A stretch of 64,000 bases of DNA, taken from the NCBI RefSeq assembly GCF_002196705.1, contig NZ_NADJ01000039.1, positions 431,631 to 495,630 on the forward strand, given 5' to 3'. Within the stretch, counting starts at the first letter, position 1, and every line of letters starts with the position of its first letter. Made by a program: the position numbers and the translations under genes. Source of the stretch: Desulfosporosinus sp. FKB (GTDB lineage Bacteria > Bacillota > Desulfitobacteriia > Desulfitobacteriales > Desulfitobacteriaceae). The notes below the pieces were generated by a model. That model saw nothing but the letters and a program-made list of their open reading frames with translations. It had not been told where the DNA came from and did not search any database. Positions 1,312 to 13,833 of the stretch are shown piece after piece.

Positions 1312-1746
1312 TTAATCAAACTTAATATGCCGATAATAGAAACTCTTCTTAGCGGCCTCATATTCCTCTGTATCGAAACTACCCTTATCCAGTTCTATCC
1401 CCACAATATTCATAATCGTACCTCTAAGCATTTTGAGATCATTTGTGATGATATCAAACACCATAAAAGTATCAATATTAATATAGTCATGAACTACCCG
1501 ATTCCTGAAGCTTTTTATCAACGGCCAATCCACATCCGAATATATCTGTTTAAGCTCTTTGCTGATTTTTCCAACATTCTCACCGATGTTCGTCAAAAGA
1601 TTCAGAGTGGCGTTGAAATTCATCTGCTCGTTCTTTTCGAAGAAGTCCTCAGCATTGGCACAATCTGCGAAATACAGTATGATTTTCTCGATGCACTCAA
1701 GTATATTAAGCAGATACATGAGGTCGTTCTTAATGCTCGGTAACAT
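1312..1746 (-). CDS. hepT: HepT-like toxin (DUF86, HEPN domain)
   Basis: The 144-residue helical HEPN/DUF86 protein carries the RX4HXY active-site motif as RNRVVHDY near residues 82-89. In characterised HepT/MntA pairs the toxin is an RNase-like or tRNA-targeting HEPN protein that the MntA partner neutralises by polyadenylylating the motif tyrosine. That mechanism comes from family knowledge and is not shown here. The gene overlaps the upstream nucleotidyltransferase gene by 17 bases, the standard layout of this TA system. Confidence 0.88.
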   Translation of the reverse strand: MLPSIKNDLMYLLNILECIEKIILYFADCANAEDFFEKNEQMNFNATLNLLTNIGENVGKISKELKQIYSDVDWPLIKSFRNRVVHDYINIDTFMVFDIITNDLKMLRGTIMNIVGIELDKGSFDTEEYEAAKKSFYYRHIKFD

Positions 1747-2026
1747 AGATAATCTCCTTTCTTGCTCTATGCAGCACTATGGGATTGGCATACCTTTCAA
1801 TTACAATATCTATGTGCTTATTTGTAAGTTTTTGGAGCTCATCTCTAAACACTGACAATGATCGGTAATCAACATTGTCTTCAATGAGGATATCTATGTC
1901 ATTAGACATTTCTCCTCTTGCCATAGAACCGAATACTCCCAATTTGCTCAATTTGAATTTCTTAAATAGATTATTTCGAAGCATAATACTTTCCAATTCA
2001 GATATCTGATGATTTTGCCCAGGCAT
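1730..2026 (-). CDS. mntA: MntA-like minimal nucleotidyltransferase antitoxin
   Basis: The 98-residue protein carries the MNT signature GSMARGE...DIDIL, with the two catalytic acidic residues of DxD and a third Asp later (HIDIV). The gap between GS and DxD is eight residues, two shorter than the usual GSX10DXD, but the core is otherwise intact. It lies immediately upstream of hepT and overlaps it. The expected role is AMP transfer to the HepT tyrosine (family knowledge). Confidence 0.85.
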   Translation of the reverse strand: MPGQNHQISELESIMLRNNLFKKFKLSKLGVFGSMARGEMSNDIDILIEDNVDYRSLSVFRDELQKLTNKHIDIVIERYANPIVLHRARKEIIYVTEH

Positions 2027-4831: not shown

Positions 4832-6994
4832 ATGAGTGACATCTTGGCGGGACTTAATGAACAGCAGCGACAGGCAGTAACTGCCACGGAAGGCTTCATA
4901 CGCGTGATTGCGGGTGCGGGGTCAGGTAAAACCCGCGCGCTGTCGCATCGTTTTGCCTATCTTGTCAATGAGATTGGCATTATGCCGTCCAACATCCTCT
5001 GTGTCACATTTACCAATAAATCCGCTCAGGAGATGAAGCATCGCATCCGCCTGCTCTGCGGCGACAACGATACCGGCTATATCAGCACGTTCCACAGCTT
5101 CTGTGTAACAGTTTTGCAGGAGGACATCAACGCTGTCCACTATCCGAAAAGCTTTCTTGTTCTTGATAATTCTGATATCAACGACATGCTGAAGATCATT
5201 TATGAAGAACGGGGCCTCACCTTGCGGCATATGACCTTCTCTAAGGCGAGAGACATGATCGAAATCCGCAAGCTGTTTAAAGATCCGGAGTACTACAAAT
5301 TTATGGTTTCTCTTTCCCTTGAAGAGCTGTACCTCAAGTATCAGAATGCCGTGGAAGCGGAGGACATTATTTTCTGGGGATACCTGTATCAGGAAAAGAA
5401 ATGTTTCGGACTCGACTACAACGACCTGATTAAATATGTACTCTACATCTTCAGTGTGGACGCTGCGATCCGGCTGAAGTGGCAGCAGCGGCTGGAATAC
5501 ATCATGATTGACGAGTATCAGGATATTGACGAACTGCAGTACCGGCTGATGAAGGTGCTGTGTGATTATCACAAAAACCTTTTTATCGTAGGCGATCCGG
5601 ATCAGACGATCTACACCTGGCGCGGTGCCCGGCTCAAATATCTGCTGGACTTTGACCAGGAATTCCCCCAGGTCCGCACCATCATGATGATGGAGAATTA
5701 TCGCTCAACACCGCAGATTCTCGCTGCAGCGAATTCTTTAATTAGAAACAATAAAAAACGCATCGACAAGGTCTTGCTTCCTACGCTGCCGGACGGGGTT
5801 CCGGTTGTTTACCATCATGCCAAAACAGCGGAGGCGGAGGCCCGCTGGGTCGCGCTGCAAATCCAGGAGCTGCTTGCTCAGGGCGTAAAACTAAGCGACA
5901 TGACAATCCTCTATCGCGCCCATTTCATCTCCCGGACGCTGGAGGAGGTATTTCTGAAAGAAAAACTTCCCTACACGATCTATAGCGGCGTACAATTTTT
6001 TGGCCGGATGGAGATCAAAGATACTCTCGCTTATCTCCGGCTCATTCTCTATAAGGACGATCTGTCCTTCCTGCGGGTTGCTAACGTGCCAAAACGCAAT
6101 ATCGGCGTGCGGCGCATGAAATTTTTGCAAGATTATGCCGTCCAAAATCAATGTTCCCTTTACAACGCTCTCGAAAGAACGATTGACCAGGAAATTTTCA
6201 AGGGCACGAAGGCCAAGGGTTTTCTCAATTTAATCGAGCATTTTTTCACAGGTTATCAGACGATGCCGATTTCCGACTTGTTAAATTCGCTCCTTGACCA
6301 AAGCGGCTATGAGGCAATGCTCCGGACGGAAGGAAGTCAGGAGCGGCTGGACAATTTGGCAGAGCTCAAACAATCGGTTTATGAATACGAGACCACAAGC
6401 GGAGAGGAAAACACCTTAGAAAACTATTTGTCTCATATAGGGCTGCTCACAAATACCGATATAGCTTCCAACAAAAATACGGTTAAACTGATGACCGTAC
6501 ATACGGCGAAGGGCCTGGAGTTTCCCTATGTGTTCCTTTGCGGTCTTGGGGAAGGCGTGTTTCCCTCAAAAAAGACCAAGACGCTTGAAGCCATGGAAGA
6601 AGAACGGCGGCTTGCCTTTGTCGCTTTCACCCGTGCGGAAAAAGCTTTGTACCTGACGGATGCGGAGGGACGGAACTTGGACGGTTCCTATCGCTATCCG
6701 TCCCGTTTCATTTTCAATGTAGCCAAGGATCTGCTGGTTTACACGGCAGAACTTGATGAAGGTCTGGTCAAGGAATCAAATTGGCATATCACCAGCAGCG
6801 AGAAGTTAATAGAAGCGAAGTCTTCAGAGTTTCCTTTCCGACCCGGCGACCGTATCGTGCACGACATCATGGGTGCCGGCGAAGTCATTGATATCAACCG
6901 TGACAAAGCTGCCTACTTAATTAAGTTCGACGGCCTTGGAACGGTGAGGAATATAAGCCTGAGAGCCAAAATCAAAGCGGAAAACGGCAGATAA
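4832..6994 (+). CDS. UvrD/PcrA-family superfamily 1A DNA helicase
   Basis: The 720-residue ATP-dependent 3'-5' DNA helicase shows all SF1A motifs: LNEQQRQAV Q-motif (8-16), Walker A GAGSGKT (28-34), TFTNKSAQEM, STFHSF, Walker B DEYQD (about 227), VGDPDQTIYTWRGA, TVHTAKGLEF and the arginine-finger region LAFVAFTRA. The C-terminal 50 residues (PGDRIVHDIMGAGEVI) match the PcrA tudor-like RNA-polymerase-binding domain. ATG 4832 fits family alignment; a TTG at 4808 is in frame. It is a stand-alone gene and probably a second UvrD paralogue. Its stop nearly touches a broken DUF364 gene. Confidence 0.92.
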   Translation: MSDILAGLNEQQRQAVTATEGFIRVIAGAGSGKTRALSHRFAYLVNEIGIMPSNILCVTFTNKSAQEMKHRIRLLCGDNDTGYISTFHSFCVTVLQEDINAVHYPKSFLVLDNSDINDMLKIIYEERGLTLRHMTFSKARDMIEIRKLFKDPEYYKFMVSLSLEELYLKYQNAVEAEDIIFWGYLYQEKKCFGLDYNDLIKYVLYIFSVDAAIRLKWQQRLEYIMIDEYQDIDELQYRLMKVLCDYHKNLFIVGDPDQTIYTWRGARLKYLLDFDQEFPQVRTIMMMENYRSTPQILAAANSLIRNNKKRIDKVLLPTLPDGVPVVYHHAKTAEAEARWVALQIQELLAQGVKLSDMTILYRAHFISRTLEEVFLKEKLPYTIYSGVQFFGRMEIKDTLAYLRLILYKDDLSFLRVANVPKRNIGVRRMKFLQDYAVQNQCSLYNALERTIDQEIFKGTKAKGFLNLIEHFFTGYQTMPISDLLNSLLDQSGYEAMLRTEGSQERLDNLAELKQSVYEYETTSGEENTLENYLSHIGLLTNTDIASNKNTVKLMTVHTAKGLEFPYVFLCGLGEGVFPSKKTKTLEAMEEERRLAFVAFTRAEKALYLTDAEGRNLDGSYRYPSRFIFNVAKDLLVYTAELDEGLVKESNWHITSSEKLIEAKSSEFPFRPGDRIVHDIMGAGEVIDINRDKAAYLIKFDGLGTVRNISLRAKIKAENGR

Positions 6995-6995
6995 G

Positions 6996-7290
6996 GAAGT
7001 TAGATAGGCATAATCCGCTTCGGGCAGCAGATATTCAGAGTCCGGCATAGGGTAGTCTCCCTCTAACGGTTCCCATTCGATGATGGAAAAATCGCAGACC
7101 GGTTCCAGCAGATTCTCCAAGTATGGAAAATGGCCGACCACCACAACCTTTTTCCCCTTGCCTTTATTCTGGGACATAATAAAGGGATCATAGCGCCGGA
7201 CATCCGAAAATTCCACGCCATTGGCTCTGGCCACCTGAGGATTGTTATAATAACACCTTCAAAGTATTTGGTTGCCACATTCCTGCCCAT
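6996..7290 (-). pseudogene. Broken DUF364 (heavy-metal-chelation domain) gene fragment
   Basis: Two frames join into one DUF364-like sequence: MGRNVATKYFEGV (from 7290) continues after a one-base loss near 7247 as YNNPQVARANGVEFSD..., then KKVVVVGHFPYLENLLEP, EWEPLEGDYPMPDSEYLLPEADYAYLT. The homology stops at about 6996, exactly where the convergent helicase gene ends, so the 3' half is missing. The N-terminal part is also short. This is a frameshifted and truncated remnant. Confidence 0.75.
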
Positions 7291-8687
7291 TACGTATTCT
7301 CTTTACTAAAATACTTATAAATTTGCCCCTGATAAAAGATCAGAACGGCTGGAACCAGCAAGAATAGAATCCTGCCCACAATAGTATTGGCGAAGAGAAT
7401 CAGTGCTCCCAACCAGCGGTTCCTGCCGCAATATAGTCCATGGACCGCCTGTCGTGTGACGGTTTTCTTCATGGCTCCTATTTGGGACATAGGGGGGTAA
7501 TTGTCGATATCCACGGTTAGTGGATTTCCTGCCTTGATAACCCGTTCTACAAAGAGCACATTATTTTCTTCAAAAAGGATGATTTGTCCTTTCACAATCG
7601 GGTACTGGACATCGACTTTCTGAAAATAGGCCAGATCATTGATCATAATCTCCGGTTCCATAGTACTGGTACTAAAGACAAAAGGGATCACTCCACGTAT
7701 GGTGACCTCTTGACCTGGGGTGGAAGAATTAATCAGGATAATGAAGACATTGAAGGCCAGGGCGGCACAAATAAAAGCAATCAGGAATAAAGTAGTCACC
7801 GTATCGACAATTCTGCCGCGCCATCCTTCTTTCACCTTGCCGCTAATCAATTTCTGCCTGCCCGTTCTGGAATCGATTTCCACCAAATTTACACCTGCCG
7901 GAATGATAGCTGAGTCGGAAGGAAGATTATAATACTTAGCCAGATTTTTGCCCCGCAACAAACATATCAGCCCGCAGACCAGCATAGCCGCCGCCTCGAC
8001 CGGCCAATACAATGAAAGCTTCAGATCGAACAGGATAAAAATATTCTGCATTAATACACGATTAGAAATAATTGCATACTGTCCCAACGTTATTTTCATC
8101 ACGAAAATAATCACAGCAGTTAAGAAGGTCCAATATCGGCCGTTAATTACTGTCTTGGCGTAAAGTGAAAACGTCATAGAAAGGATTGTCATGAGGAGCA
8201 GGTCTCCGACCCCCACCAGGTAGAGGGTTGGCAGATAAGCGGCTATGAAGGTGTATTTCAGAAAAAAAGTGAGGATTATCGTAACCGCAAAACCAACGGT
8301 ATAAATTAGCAGTACAGAATACATTAAAGCGGCAAACTTGGAAACAAGCATGCTCATTGGCCGATAGCCCATTTGAATCAGAAGATACCAGGAGTTTTTT
8401 CTGATCTCTGAGAAAAAAAGATAATCGTAGTAGACAATGAAATAGATAATGTTAAAAACGACTGCTATGTGAATATAAAGGTAAACTGTGGAAAAGTAAC
8501 TGGCTTGCATGATTTCGGGAACGACATCAGAAAGTACGCTTTTCTGTAATGTTTGAAACACAAAGTAAAGGGCAAATGAAACAAGACCCAAAAACAAAGC
8601 CGAGGTCATTTTTCGATTTGTGCTGATTTTATTTCCCATGTAGGCTTGGCGAAGTTCTTTTTTGAAATAGCTATTCTTGTAAATCAT
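7290..8687 (-). CDS. Membrane permease fused to a catalytically dead SipW-like domain
   Basis: About 465 residues. Residues 1-250 form 6-7 membrane helices like an ABC-2-type permease. A linker and another helix lead to an extracytoplasmic segment that aligns with the SipW-type signal peptidase downstream in the strand order. The nucleophile motif SGSMEP is STSTMEP here (Thr near 342 in place of Ser), and the catalytic His of VTHRII is Glu (FVERVI, near 381). Two C-terminal helices follow. It overlaps the degenerate ATPase gene by about 17 bases. Inference: a transport or holdase subunit for SipW substrates, not a peptidase. Confidence 0.7.
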   Translation of the reverse strand: MIYKNSYFKKELRQAYMGNKISTNRKMTSALFLGLVSFALYFVFQTLQKSVLSDVVPEIMQASYFSTVYLYIHIAVVFNIIYFIVYYDYLFFSEIRKNSWYLLIQMGYRPMSMLVSKFAALMYSVLLIYTVGFAVTIILTFFLKYTFIAAYLPTLYLVGVGDLLLMTILSMTFSLYAKTVINGRYWTFLTAVIIFVMKITLGQYAIISNRVLMQNIFILFDLKLSLYWPVEAAAMLVCGLICLLRGKNLAKYYNLPSDSAIIPAGVNLVEIDSRTGRQKLISGKVKEGWRGRIVDTVTTLFLIAFICAALAFNVFIILINSSTPGQEVTIRGVIPFVFSTSTMEPEIMINDLAYFQKVDVQYPIVKGQIILFEENNVLFVERVIKAGNPLTVDIDNYPPMSQIGAMKKTVTRQAVHGLYCGRNRWLGALILFANTIVGRILFLLVPAVLIFYQGQIYKYFSKENT

Positions 8688-9642
8688 GCTGCCGTATAAG
8701 CTCCTCATAGGCATTTTGCACTGTTTTAGAATTAATCTCTATAGAATCTGGTGTAAAGCCGGACTCTATGATTTTTTTATAAATAATACCATGGTCACTG
8801 ACTTCTGAAGTTTTGCGGCTGATCATCAGACTGCCGCCTTTAACGTCCAGCTCATAACCTGGAAGCAGCAGGGTAAGTTTTTCTTTCATTGACTCAACGG
8901 CTTTATCCCGGATAATCACTTCCACCTTGTCAAAGCTCAAACGAAAATTCTCAACGGTGCCGCTGTAGATTAATAGTCCATTCTTCGTTATTGCCGTATG
9001 CGAACAGGCCTTCTCGATCAGAAGGCAGTTCTGTGTGGCGAGGATTAAGGTTTTTCTTTTCTCCTTAATAAAACTTGTCATTTTGGAGATTGCATCAATA
9101 AGCACTTCATCCCAAACGTATTTAGGAAGATTAAAGACGATCATCAAGCTGTCGGAGAAAGCAGCCGCAATTAAAGTAATGACGGCTTTTTCCTCTTTGG
9201 TCAGCATATAGTTGGGTGTCAAGGAAAGGTGGCCCAATCCGATTGCTATGATTAATTCAAAAATCTCTTCCTGCAGCTCCACCCGATTAATCTTAGATTT
9301 AGCGGCAGCGAACATCAAAAATTCCAGCACATTCATATTGTTATAAAGCATCTCAGAGCCCCCGATATAAAATACATGCTTGAGAATCACCCGTTTGAGC
9401 CTCATCATGCCACGCTCGATCAACACGCATTTTCCCTTGTCATAGGGTCTGATATTTGCCATAATTTCCAACAACAGCTTGATTTCAAACAGTGACGTCC
9501 CATTGATACCCCAGATTTCCGCACTTCTGATCAACAGGTTGATATCATCCAGCACCCGCCGGGGCTTCTCACCTCCGACCAAAAAATGTTCACTTGACGC
9601 GACACCTTCCATTACTACAATCTGCTCCGGAACATGTTCCAT
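8671..9642 (-). CDS. Degenerate ABC-transporter ATPase-like protein
   Basis: The 323-residue protein has the layout of an ABC ATPase (VLDDINLLI before the P-loop position, a helical segment, signature and Walker B positions). However, the P-loop reads GINGTSLFEI (45-54) without the Lys-Ser/Thr pair, the LSGGQ position reads LTKEE, and Walker B ends VFNLP without Asp-Glu. ATP hydrolysis is therefore unlikely. The start at 9642 has GGGAG 8 bases upstream. It lies between sipW and the permease fusion in one minus-strand operon, suggesting a structural partner of that permease. Confidence 0.7.
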   Translation of the reverse strand: MEHVPEQIVVMEGVASSEHFLVGGEKPRRVLDDINLLIRSAEIWGINGTSLFEIKLLLEIMANIRPYDKGKCVLIERGMMRLKRVILKHVFYIGGSEMLYNNMNVLEFLMFAAAKSKINRVELQEEIFELIIAIGLGHLSLTPNYMLTKEEKAVITLIAAAFSDSLMIVFNLPKYVWDEVLIDAISKMTSFIKEKRKTLILATQNCLLIEKACSHTAITKNGLLIYSGTVENFRLSFDKVEVIIRDKAVESMKEKLTLLLPGYELDVKGGSLMISRKTSEVSDHGIIYKKIIESGFTPDSIEINSKTVQNAYEELIRQHDLQE

Positions 9643-9672
9643 GTTTATTTCTCCCATTAAGTCTGCTTTATG

Positions 9673-10209
9673 TTAAAACGGTATTTTGGCAAAAAATACC
9701 CCGATCACCCGATTGGGCGTGAGCAGATCCTGATCCGGTGAATTTATCGGATTATCCCCCTTTGTGCGGTAAGCTTTACTGCCGTTGTTATTAATAACCT
9801 CTATAATCCGATGGGTAACAATAGCGTTGGATAAGGTTCTGAATGTCACGATTTGATTGACTTTAAGATTTCCCGGGTCTTTAGGTATGCGGCTGACAAT
9901 CATTGTTCCAACTTCCAGCGTAGGCTCCATACTGCCGGACTCCACGGCAAAAACCTGAAAACCCAGGACATTAGGAATTCCTCCCCTGCCCTTGGTAATT
10001 TGGATGGAAATAATAGACCACACCAGAAGTAGACACAACGCTAAAAATGCCGCTCCACTCACTGTTTTCAAAGCCCTTCTTCCGTGGGGCAGCCGGCTCT
10101 CAGACGGGGCTTTTCCAGAAGATATTCCCGCCAGTTTTTCTTTTTCATGCAGGATTTCCTGGCGCATTGCTTCGATTTGTTCCTGGGTCGTATACCTTGT
10201 TGGTGTCAT
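9673..10209 (-). CDS. sipW: SipW-type signal peptidase I
   Basis: The 178-residue ER/archaeal-type signal peptidase has a cytoplasmic N-terminus, one membrane helix (about 50-72), the nucleophile motif SGSMEP (Ser93) and the catalytic His in VTHRII (His133) that replaces the Lys of ordinary bacterial peptidases. KGDNP and the terminal VIGVFFAKIPF are also typical. SipW processes TasA/camelysin-type exported proteins, and three substrates with matching signals are encoded just upstream. GAAGGTG precedes ATG 10209. It is co-oriented with the two ABC-like genes that follow. Confidence 0.93.
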   Translation of the reverse strand: MTPTRYTTQEQIEAMRQEILHEKEKLAGISSGKAPSESRLPHGRRALKTVSGAAFLALCLLLVWSIISIQITKGRGGIPNVLGFQVFAVESGSMEPTLEVGTMIVSRIPKDPGNLKVNQIVTFRTLSNAIVTHRIIEVINNNGSKAYRTKGDNPINSPDQDLLTPNRVIGVFFAKIPF

Positions 10210-10312
10210 GGATTCACCTTCTTTTAGGGGAATAGTGCCCAGCTCAACGATTGATTTTCTTATTATGTCCTATGGCTATGTAAAAAATCAAAGCATCGCG
10301 CGTCGAAAACAG

Positions 10313-10349
10313 ACAGGGCGCGAGAACTATACTAACTCTCGCGCCCTGT
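10313..10349 (-). terminator. Strong hairpin between substrate genes and sipW
   Basis: ACAGGGCGCGAGA (10313-10325) is exactly complementary to 10337-10349. On the minus strand it lies 3' of the TasA-like genes and is followed by a short T-rich stretch (CTGTTTTCG). It probably lets the abundant substrates be expressed at a higher level than sipW and the downstream genes. Confidence 0.75.
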
Positions 10350-10373
10350 TGAAATATTAATAAATTATCTTAT

Positions 10374-10904
10374 TTATTGCTGAGTCCCGGTAACAGACAC
10401 CTTAACGTCTGTTCCATAATTTGCTCCCGCATAATTGATATCTGAGTTATTGTCGCCAGGCCAGTTCACTGATACCGTATAGGTTTTCTCTTGTCCGGTA
10501 GGGCTCAGCGCAAAGGCATCGTTAAATACAATTCTGCCACTTGAGTTAACTGTACCAACAGTATCACCGTCAGAGTTTTTGACAGTCACTACCAACGGGG
10601 CTATCACACTCTTACCCGCCTCTGCTTCAACATCCACAGCAAAATTCAGGCCCATGGCAGTCTCACTTATTACATCACCGTCATAGTTTTTAACGCTGAA
10701 CTGCCAACTCGTTGTTTCAGACGGTGCTATTTTTACATCCTTCGTAAACGTATCTGTTCCGCCTTTTATTAAGGTAAATTCTTTGGCAACGACACTGCCT
10801 TCAGCAACATTATCGATCGTTGTCGTATACATAGCTAAGGTTCCGGCGACTATAGACGTGGACAGAACCAAGATAAGGGCGATAATTGTCAGTGCTTTTT
10901 TCAT
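10374..10904 (-). CDS. TasA/camelysin-like SipW-dependent secreted protein
   Basis: The 176-residue exported protein has a lysine-led hydrophobic signal with the SipW-type end STSIVAGTLAMYT. The mature part resembles TasA/CalY: DNVAEGSVVAKEF, IAPSETTSWQFSVKNYDGDVISE, repeated beta strands, and SVNWPGDNNSDINYAG. Family members form extracellular fibres or matrix components. The N-terminal 90 residues are close to those of the larger gene upstream, so the two are paralogues. No LPXTG or membrane anchor is seen. A good ribosome site (AGGAG) precedes ATG 10904. Confidence 0.85.
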   Translation of the reverse strand: MKKALTIIALILVLSTSIVAGTLAMYTTTIDNVAEGSVVAKEFTLIKGGTDTFTKDVKIAPSETTSWQFSVKNYDGDVISETAMGLNFAVDVEAEAGKSVIAPLVVTVKNSDGDTVGTVNSSGRIVFNDAFALSPTGQEKTYTVSVNWPGDNNSDINYAGANYGTDVKVSVTGTQQ

Positions 10905-10952
10905 TAGATCATTTCTCCTCCAATTCCAATTGATTATTGATCAAATTCCGGC

Positions 10953-11096
10953 TCAGTGGTTATTTATCTTGTGCAAATCAGGGTAAATAGTTGTACCGAA
11001 ACTGGTAACGCTCGTATAGTTGGAAAGAGTGCCCACGGTTAAAGAAACAAATGCTATGGCACACAAAACAAGAATTAAGAAAAGTTTTTTTCTCAT
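10953..11096 (-). CDS. 47-aa peptide with SipW-type signal
   Basis: ATG 11096 follows GGGAGGG and opens a 47-codon frame: MRKKLFLILVLCAIAFVSLT, then VGTLSNYTSVTSFG and a short tail ending INNH. The GTLSNYT segment matches the SipW cleavage-region pattern of both neighbours, leaving a mature peptide of only about 20 residues. It sits between the two TasA-like genes in the same direction. Function unknown; it could be a matrix nucleator, a signal, or a decayed TasA paralogue. Confidence 0.7.
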   Translation of the reverse strand: MRKKLFLILVLCAIAFVSLTVGTLSNYTSVTSFGTTIYPDLHKINNH

Positions 11097-11137
11097 TTTC
11101 CCTCCCTCATCTCATCCATATAATCCAGCCAGGATCC

Positions 11138-12091
11138 TTAGTTCAAGGATGCCTTGCCAAATTGACATGTTAAATCCACATTCGTAATATCGCTGATATT
11201 GCTTCCGCCAACACTAATACTTTGGATTGCCGCAGTACCCATACCCAGTGCCGGACCTCCAAAGGAAACGCTTTGTCCCGGCAAGATATCATCTGTCGCC
11301 TGATTGTTATAACCAGGGTTAAGGAATTGGTAGTTTCCCGGCGGCGAGGTGGACACTAATTTGGCATTACTCCAGACGCCGGTCAGGGTGTCCGTAGGAA
11401 GGTAGAAGCCAATGCTCCAATTGTTGATTGGCTGAGAGGTATTATTAGTGATTGTAACTTTATAATTATATTGATAAACACCGCTTTGTCCGTTTTGCCA
11501 TGGAGTTGTCGTTTCATAGTGAACGCTGACCTGCTTCCCCTGGGATGGAGATGTACTAAAAGGAATCTGAGAAGCAACAGCATTAACATTGATCATCGTT
11601 CCATAATCACTGCCTGCATACTTTGCGTCAGAAGAACCATTATCCGGCCAATATATCTGCACAAAGTAGTCCTGCTCCTGCCCATTAACTGCAAGAGGAA
11701 ATGATCCCAGAACATCAAAGGTGCCTACACCAGTCACACTGTTCAGCGCATTACCTTTCGAGTCTTTAACGGTAATTTCTAAAGGGGCTATTGCCTTTTT
11801 TCCTGACGAGGCTTGCACATTAAACGTAAGTTTGTAGTACATATCAGTTTCAGATACTGTATCACCCTCATAGTTTTTGACTTTGAACTGCCACTGAGTT
11901 GTCTCAGACGGCGCTATTTTCAATCCCTGCTGAAAGGTATCAGTACCTCCCCCTACAAAGATGAACTCTTTAGCAACGACACTGCCTTCAGCCAGGTTGT
12001 CAATGGAGACAGTATACATAGCCAATGTTCCTGCCACAATTGAACTTAGCATGACTAAAACCAAAGCTAAGATAAAAAGGATTTTTTTCAT
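11138..12091 (-). CDS. TasA-like protein with carbohydrate-binding-like C-terminal domain
   Basis: 317 residues. Residues 1-30 are a SipW-type signal (SSIVAGTLAMYTVSID). Residues 30-180 form a TasA/camelysin domain paralogous to the 176-aa neighbour (GSVVAKEF, IAPSETTQWQFKVKNYEGD). Residues 185-317 resemble a CBM2-type beta-sandwich (VTITNNTSQPINNWSIGFYL, VWSNAKLVS, NPGYN, ILPGQSVSFGG) with conserved Trp residues. A fibre-forming domain joined to a glycan binder suggests a matrix or cell-surface polysaccharide crosslinker (inference). GAGGTG precedes ATG 12091. First gene of the operon. Confidence 0.82.
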   Translation of the reverse strand: MKKILFILALVLVMLSSIVAGTLAMYTVSIDNLAEGSVVAKEFIFVGGGTDTFQQGLKIAPSETTQWQFKVKNYEGDTVSETDMYYKLTFNVQASSGKKAIAPLEITVKDSKGNALNSVTGVGTFDVLGSFPLAVNGQEQDYFVQIYWPDNGSSDAKYAGSDYGTMINVNAVASQIPFSTSPSQGKQVSVHYETTTPWQNGQSGVYQYNYKVTITNNTSQPINNWSIGFYLPTDTLTGVWSNAKLVSTSPPGNYQFLNPGYNNQATDDILPGQSVSFGGPALGMGTAAIQSISVGGSNISDITNVDLTCQFGKASLN

Positions 12092-12542: not shown

Positions 12543-12722
12543 TTAAACATTTGTTGGTACCGCTTTTTCCATCAGCAGCTCTTGATACCTGTTTAATACT
12601 TTATCCAACTCCTGACTTGCAGTTACAACTACCGCATCTGTATAAGCCCTTCCCTCTTTTGTATTAATCAGGTTCAAGCGTAATTCTTCAATTTGCTTTA
12701 TTAATTCGTCGATCTCAGACAT
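12543..12722 (-). CDS. Spo0E-like aspartyl-phosphate phosphatase
   Basis: The 59-residue protein starts at ATG 12722, 5 bases after GGAGG. It has two helices as in the Spo0E family: MSEIDELIKQIEELRLNLIN and then the signature segment with SQELDKVLNRYQELL. The SQELD motif is what Spo0E proteins use to dephosphorylate Spo0A~P and delay sporulation. It is monocistronic with two hairpins downstream. Its position next to a matrix-type operon is suggestive, because Spo0A controls both in Bacillus; the link here is inference. Confidence 0.85.
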   Translation of the reverse strand: MSEIDELIKQIEELRLNLINTKEGRAYTDAVVVTASQELDKVLNRYQELLMEKAVPTNV

Positions 12723-12907: not shown

Positions 12908-13108
12908 TTATGATTTATAAAAAATAGTCCAATCAAACATTAAAACGCTGCTAAGTCTTTTCGCAGTTTTGACACCAGGGTTTTTGTTGCCTGACTCTAT
13001 TTCTGCATAATATGATCTACTTATTCCTGCTTTATTTGCAACTTGCTGCTGTGTTAAATTCCCCCGATATTTTATCAGCCACAGCCTCGTCTTGCCAAAT
13101 TCAGCCAC
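12908..13108 (-). CDS. Small XRE-family regulator
   Basis: The 66-residue protein consists of one HTH (LTQQQVANKAGISRSYYAEIESGNKNP, then VKTAKRLSSVL). The start is GTG 13108 after GGGGGG. It is divergent from a two-HTH regulator, and the shared 150-base gap contains four related palindromes, so both are likely autoregulated from the same operators. Confidence 0.8.
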   Translation of the reverse strand: MAEFGKTRLWLIKYRGNLTQQQVANKAGISRSYYAEIESGNKNPGVKTAKRLSSVLMFDWTIFYKS

Positions 13109-13257: not shown

Positions 13258-13833
13258 ATGCTTGAAGTGTTAGGAAAAAGGCTGCTATATCTAAGAAATA
13301 AGATTAAACTCACACAAGAGGAGCTGGCAAAAATACTTTGTATGTCCCGAAGTACGTATGCCCAATATGAAGTAGACAGACGTAAACCTGATTATGATAC
13401 TCTGCAAAGAATTGCGGATTATTTTAAGGTCTCTACCGATTTCTTATTAGGACGGACAGAACATTCTGTCCTTGAAGAAAATAATTTTCCCAGCAGACTA
13501 AAGATGATACGTGAACTAAATGGTATCTCCCTAAACCAATTAGCCGAAAATCTTAACATACCTCCAACCGACATATCCCAATTTGAAACAGGCGAAAAAT
13601 ACCCCACCCCCTCTACTTTGAACATCTTGGCAGAAAGCCTGAATTGTTCTGTTGACTTTCTTCTCGGGCGAATCACTGACCCAAGACCTTATTTACTTGA
13701 AAGCCAGCAAGATTACAGTACTTTAGCCGCCCACCGTTCAGACGACCCCCTGGATGATCTGCCCGAAGAAGCGAAAAAATCGCTTGCAGAATTCACAGAA
13801 TTCATTCTTAACAAATACCGTAAAGACAATTAG
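13258..13833 (+). CDS. Tandem-HTH XRE-family regulator
   Basis: 191 residues with two complete Cro/C1 domains: residues 5-65 (LTQEELAKILCMSRSTYAQYE, VSTDFLLGRTEHS) and residues 75-140 (LNQLAENLNIPPTDISQFET, CSVDFLLGRITD), then an acidic helical tail. A protein with two DNA-binding domains fits the closely spaced operator array just upstream. ATG 13258 has GAGGAG 7 bases upstream and a second AGGAGG too close to it; a GTG at 13267 is an alternative start. Confidence 0.85.
   Translation: MLEVLGKRLLYLRNKIKLTQEELAKILCMSRSTYAQYEVDRRKPDYDTLQRIADYFKVSTDFLLGRTEHSVLEENNFPSRLKMIRELNGISLNQLAENLNIPPTDISQFETGEKYPTPSTLNILAESLNCSVDFLLGRITDPRPYLLESQQDYSTLAAHRSDDPLDDLPEEAKKSLAEFTEFILNKYRKDN

What the first reader, a model, noticed from the sequence alone, without database searches (positions are those of the whole stretch)
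7290..12091. SipW/TasA locus carrying a degenerate ABC pair and a dead SipW domain
Three exported proteins with SipW-type signals, an intact SipW peptidase (Ser93, His133), an ABC-like ATPase without Walker A Lys, LSGGQ or Walker B Asp-Glu, and a permease fused to a SipW-like domain share one strand and close spacing. An ATPase-dead ABC pair next to a signal peptidase is not the usual tasA operon. Possibly it forms a docking or assembly platform for fibre subunits at the membrane.
Basis: partly seen in the sequence, partly recalled or inferred. Interest (0 to 1): 0.82.

Follow-up and report, generated by a model that had tools for sequence, protein, structure and literature searches.

The report
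Dead-enzyme platform for TasA-like fibres
Some anaerobic bacteria carry, next to their surface-fibre genes, a conserved pair of membrane proteins built from a transporter motor and a signal-cutting enzyme that have both lost their active sites, and these probably hold and hand over fibre subunits rather than catalyse anything.

Summary
In a Desulfosporosinus-type genome one strand carries two TasA-like fibre subunits (one with a CBM2 domain), a 47-aa peptide with a SipW-type signal, an intact SipW, an ABC-type ATPase with every catalytic motif lost, and an ABC-2-type permease fused to a SipW-like domain lacking the catalytic His. This is not local decay. In 28 of 28 aligned orthologues the Walker A Lys, LSGGQ, Walker B D/E and H-switch are gone, the replacing residues are mostly fixed, and dN/dS is about 0.1. 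The SipW-ABC-permease core keeps its order, with overlapping ABC and permease genes, across several Clostridia lineages. Among 151 related genomes the full-length permease occurs in exactly the 18 that have these TasA-like genes. SipWs of these clusters share an N-terminal motif (YTT.EQIE.MR; 19 of 19) not found in the SipW-like proteins checked from elsewhere. A hairpin between tasA and sipW suggests the module is made in low amounts. Best reading: a non-catalytic membrane platform that docks SipW and holds or hands over cleaved subunits, comparable to the dead signal peptidase SipA of streptococcal pili. That role is inferred, not shown. The 47-aa peptide resembles a natural minimal TapA.

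The parts
11138..12091 (-). TasA-like subunit with C-terminal CBM2 domain, 317 aa
   Evidence: SipW-type signal by sequence; CBM_2 at residues 189-297, 3.6e-8, over cut-off
10953..11096 (-). 47-aa peptide with SipW-type signal, predicted mature part about 22 residues; candidate minimal TapA-like initiator
   Evidence: Homologues between the two TasA-like genes in most loci; dN/dS 0.14. Role inferred
10374..10904 (-). TasA-like subunit, 176 aa
   Evidence: Alignment A3, invariant Y26 at the predicted P2' position; first 71 columns match camelysin-type proteins
10313..10349 (-). 17-bp hairpin with T-rich tail between tasA and sipW, candidate attenuator
9673..10209 (-). SipW signal peptidase, intact Ser93 (9931-9933) and His133 (9811-9813)
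   Evidence: NF046067 4.8e-27; TIGR02228 2.2e-20, 73.1 bits over its cut-off 51.85
10159..10194 (-). YTTQEQIEAMR-type motif in the SipW N-terminus, candidate docking motif (approximate coordinates)
   Evidence: 19 of 19 cluster SipWs, none of the controls; docking inferred
8671..9642 (-). Pseudo-ATPase of ABC fold, 323 aa (the listed ORF begins at 9657)
7290..8687 (-). ABC-2-type permease (residues 1 to about 254) fused to a pseudo-SipW domain (about 325-430) between two further TM helices, 465 aa
12171..12199 (-). Possible promoter, TTGACC-17-TATTAT with TG before the second hexamer
   Evidence: promoter-like sites in the region are no more frequent than in shuffles, so weak

Best explanation
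The ABC-like protein and the permease/pseudo-SipW protein form a non-catalytic complex that serves as the membrane assembly platform of a TasA-like fibre. Subunits leave through Sec (assumed). The intact SipW docks on the platform through its cytosolic N-terminal segment and cleaves their signals. The extracellular pseudo-SipW domain, which keeps the strand around the former active site but not the catalytic pair, holds freshly cleaved subunits or their N-terminal donor strands until the next subunit or the 47-aa peptide completes them. The 47-aa peptide supplies a first donor strand, as TapA is thought to do in Bacillus subtilis, and the CBM2 subunit gives the fibre a carbohydrate-binding part. 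Shown: gene content, order, dead sites, purifying selection, co-occurrence, fold. Inferred: complex formation, docking, hand-over, initiator role, export route.
For: All catalytic motifs lost in 28 of 28 ABC orthologues with mostly fixed replacements; dN/dS about 0.1 for ABC and permease; ABC and permease genes overlap in every locus record measured; full-length permease and TasA-like gene in the same 18 of 151 genomes; SipW N-terminal motif in 19 of 19 cluster SipWs and in none of the controls; pseudo-SipW domain resembles SipA, a dead signal peptidase essential for pilus polymerisation (PMC4049620); hairpin between tasA and sipW in 21 of 22 loci, consistent with low expression of the module; residues 44-57 of mature TapA suffice in B. 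subtilis (PMC10151520).
Against: No interaction or phenotype data. Bacillus subtilis, B. cereus and Clostridium perfringens make SipW-dependent fibres without such a pair, and BsaA polymerises on its own (PMC7395162), so a platform is not needed for all such fibres. The co-occurrence is not corrected for shared descent. The permease model has modest confidence. Membership of these subunits in the TasA fold was shown only for the N-terminal part.
Confidence: 0.5

Rival explanations
1. The pair is only a membrane anchor: the pseudo-SipW domain grips the fibre base and the ABC-like parts are structural, with no part in ordering assembly.
For: Same dead sites and co-occurrence data; TapA-like anchoring proteins are proposed in B. 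subtilis (PMC9674648).
Against: Does not explain conservation of the cytosolic ABC-like protein or the SipW N-terminal motif.
Confidence: 0.2
2. The complex is a sensor: the pseudo-SipW domain reads the load of uncleaved or unassembled subunits and signals inward through the pseudo-ABC protein.
For: Extracellular domain joined to a cytosolic partner through a permease (topology inferred); sensory ABC modules are known in general (own knowledge).
Against: No kinase or regulator is a constant neighbour in the loci read.
Confidence: 0.13
3. The pair still transports something, either without ATP or with a nucleotide site built differently.
For: ABC fold and ABC-2-type membrane fold are kept.
Against: Walker A, Walker B, signature and H-switch are all lost in all 28 orthologues.
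Confidence: 0.1
4. The two genes are decaying remnants of a former transporter.
For: Loss of catalytic motifs; a 50-aa remnant of the permease in one related genome, G002 (L110).
Against: Open frames in distant lineages (one internal TAG was flagged for G033, although a full ORF is listed), dN/dS about 0.1, mostly fixed replacements.
Confidence: 0.01

Closest known systems
SipA (Spy0127) of Streptococcus pyogenes pilus loci, PDB 4n31
   Same: Signal-peptidase fold without catalytic residues, encoded with surface-fibre genes, essential for polymerisation (PMC4049620); best signal-peptidase match of the pseudo-SipW domain, Z 8.5
   Different: Stand-alone protein of the Ser-Lys type in sortase-built pili; not fused to a permease and not paired with an ABC protein
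Bacillus subtilis tapA-sipW-tasA operon
   Same: SipW, SipW-dependent fibre subunits and a small or minor donor-strand partner
   Different: No ABC or permease gene; TapA is a full protein although its first 14 mature residues suffice (PMC10151520)
Clostridium perfringens sipW-bsaABCRSD operon
   Same: SipW plus fibre-forming secreted proteins in a clostridial species, with a terminator and readthrough inside the operon (PMC7395162)
   Different: Carries a two-component system; no ABC or permease gene is described
NosFY / PmtCD-type ABC-2 transporters
   Same: Fold of the ABC protein and of permease residues 1-254
   Different: Those have working nucleotide sites; here all motifs are lost and a pseudo-SipW domain is added

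Membership tests
SipW / ER-type signal peptidase (gene 9673-10209) | Catalytic Ser and His and SipW family match | tested here: met
   S93 and H133 invariant in 19; TIGR02228 over cut-off; NF046067 significant but under its cut-off (94.8 of 190)
SipW / ER-type signal peptidase (permease C-terminal domain) | Catalytic Ser and His | tested here: not met
   Thr (Ser in two) and Glu, Gly or Ala at the two positions
ABC ATPase | ABC fold | tested here: met
   1vpl profile match 1.5e-13, Z about 20
ABC ATPase | Walker A, signature, Walker B, H-switch | tested here: not met
   Absent in 28 of 28 orthologues
ABC-2-type permease | Six-helix ABC-2 fold | tested here: met
   Six hydropathy peaks in residues 29-244; Z about 13 to NosY over 228 residues, on a model of modest confidence and without a significant Foldseek E-value or Pfam hit
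TasA / camelysin (PF12389) | Match to the family model | tested here: inconclusive
   3 of 20 members, best 0.0048; hhalign 88.7% over 71 columns, signal included
TasA / camelysin | Donor-strand polymerisation | not testable with these tools
   Needs structure or microscopy of fibres
TasA / camelysin | SipW-type signal with aromatic P2' residue | tested here: met
   Tyr26 invariant in 20; aromatic P2' of TasA described in PMC10269814 (abstract); cleavage site predicted by eye
TapA (47-aa peptide) | Folded Ig-like domain after the donor strand | tested here: not met
   Predicted mature peptide of only about 22 residues, so it is not filed as TapA; the works-like claim rests on TapA 44-57 sufficing

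The most novel reading that the evidence does not exclude
A Gram-positive, energy-independent counterpart of an outer-membrane usher: a pseudo-ABC complex with a pseudo-signal-peptidase domain that couples signal cleavage by a docked SipW to donor-strand polymerisation of a surface fibre.
Probability: 0.3. Interest if true: 0.85.

Novelty: new variant of a known kind. Interest (0 to 1): 0.7.

Why it matters
How TasA-type fibres are started and fed at the membrane is open, and no membrane assembly machine is described for SipW/TasA systems in the papers read. A conserved module that always travels with one branch of these fibres gives a testable candidate. It is also a case of two enzyme families losing catalysis in one operon while staying under strong selection, and it may include a naturally minimal fibre initiator.

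Tried and rejected
Pfam for the ABC protein: no hit for the window copy and only 5 of 25 orthologues, so annotation can miss it. PDB sequence search with the permease profile: nothing at E 1. PDB search with the TasA profile: only a weak S-layer match, 0.0044. Viral contigs: no relative of the permease. Rfam: nothing in the window at gathering scores. Literature searches for this gene set or for pseudo-ATPase ABC proteins: nothing matching, in open-access papers only. Distance-matrix correlation between the proteins did not discriminate. Decay was rejected on selection data. My pattern for SipW active sites missed SDSM-type sites, so only the N-terminal motif result is used; that too is a pattern match, and a few control ORFs are truncated or fused and lack a comparable N-terminus.

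Full report
Setting. The window lies in a genome (G000) whose closest named relatives by this locus are Desulfosporosinus. On the minus strand, in transcription order, are a TasA-like protein with CBM2 (12091-11138), a 47-aa peptide (11096-10953), a TasA-like protein (10904-10374), SipW (10209-9673), an ABC-like protein (9642-8671) and a permease with a SipW-like C-terminal domain (8687-7290). The starts used for the last two follow the orthologues.

The ABC-like protein is a true ABC fold without a working site. The window copy has no Pfam hit, but NCBIfam ABC models match it, best 9.7e-11. The profile of 25 orthologues matches Thermotoga 1vpl at 1.5e-13, and the AlphaFold model (pLDDT 87.5) matches ABC ATPases at Z about 20. 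On these alignments the Walker A Lys is Ile in 22 of 28 and never Lys, the next position is Lys or Arg in 28 of 28, LSGGQ is LT.EE-like, the Walker B Asp is Asn in 27 of 28, the catalytic Glu is Leu, Phe or Val, and no His is left at the switch. The most conserved stretches are the rewritten signature and residues 89-112; that the latter faces the permease is inferred from ABC architecture.

The permease. Residues 1-254 match NosY and ABCG/PmtD-type membrane domains (Z about 13), and residues 329-430 match signal peptidases, S. pyogenes SipA being the best of these at Z 8.5. Confidence of this model is modest (pLDDT 69) and no Foldseek E-value is below 0.001. SipW homology is also supported by sequence: NF046067 at 1.3e-5, Peptidase_S26 in four orthologues, best 4.5e-4, and hhalign 95.4% against the SipW profile. 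The nucleophile position is Thr in nearly all and Ser in two. The His position is Glu in 25 of 25 rows of A1, and Gly and Ala in the two further divergent loci L103 and L104. Hydropathy gives six TM helices, then one on each side of the pseudo-SipW domain; that this places the domain outside is inferred.

Conservation and context. The order TasA-CBM, peptide, TasA, SipW, ABC, permease recurs in Desulfosporosinus, in other genera of its family and order, in Anaerobacterium and in unclassified Clostridia; the peptide was not found in every locus. In G033 and G041 three genes on the opposite strand lie between the TasA part and SipW-ABC-permease. In G528 and G494 the core precedes the TasA-like genes, and a small SipW-signal protein has a CBM5/12-like stretch (8.9e-6 in L103, just under cut-off; weak in L104). 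Among 151 related genomes 18 have a full-length permease and the same 18 have this TasA-like gene. Among 391 genomes of the class of Anaerobacterium, 6 have a full-length permease, the centre genome included; none of the 15 genomes with camelysin-family (PF12389) proteins in a 196-genome sample is among them. Median dN/dS in the genus is ABC 0.11, permease 0.08, SipW 0.17, TasA 0.09 and peptide 0.14 (synonymous sites are near saturation, so these are rough). ABC and permease genes overlap in all 52 locus records measured, some of which are the same genome fetched twice.

SipW N-terminal motif. All 19 SipWs of these clusters begin with a YTT.EQIE.MR-like motif before their single TM helix. None of the 19 SipW-like ORFs from elsewhere and none of the 13 beside camelysin-family genes (a few of these are truncated or fused) has it. 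This is a correlation; docking on the pseudo-ABC complex is my inference.

Expression. A 17-bp hairpin with a T-rich tail separates tasA and sipW. A strong hairpin, different in sequence, occurs at that place in 21 of 22 loci, most with some T-rich tail. Low readthrough would make SipW, ABC and permease scarce relative to subunits, as expected for machinery. No expression data support this yet.

The 47-aa peptide. Its predicted mature part is about 22 residues. In B. subtilis the 14 mature residues 44-57 of TapA suffice for biofilm formation (PMC10151520), and TapA is thought to give the first donor strand (PMC9674648). In L016 and L018 the equivalent gene is longer (255 and 190 aa). The proposed role rests on analogy.

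Comparison. SipA of S. pyogenes is the nearest functional precedent: no peptidase activity, a kept peptide-binding groove, essential for pilus polymerisation (PMC4049620). The SipW systems read about in B. subtilis, B. cereus and C. perfringens include no such pair.

Verdict. An assembly platform is the best-supported reading at about 0.5; anchor, sensor and residual transporter remain open.

Noticed in passing
window 12543-12722 (-), 12908-13108 (-), 13258-13833 (+): Upstream of the operon lie a Spo0E-like protein (PF09388, 4e-11) and two XRE-type HTH proteins. Spo0E-like and SinR-like regulators touch biofilm control in Bacillus, but a link here is untested.
   Followed up: partly
window 6917-7234 (-): A 105-aa ORF matches only positions 1-72 of DUF364 (4.1e-13), directly downstream of the operon; it looks like a truncated gene fragment.
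   Followed up: no
L110:7008-7160: A 50-aa ORF 79% identical to part of the permease, with no other cluster gene beside it: a remnant of a lost cluster in another genome of the genus.
   Followed up: partly
L091:1477-2599: Two SipW-like ORFs in tandem; the second reads TDLMENDL where SGSMEPT is expected, so another active and possibly inactive signal-peptidase pair may exist without an ABC protein.
   Followed up: no
window 1312-2026 (-): Two overlapping small ORFs that look, by eye only, like a HEPN-MNT toxin-antitoxin pair.
   Followed up: no
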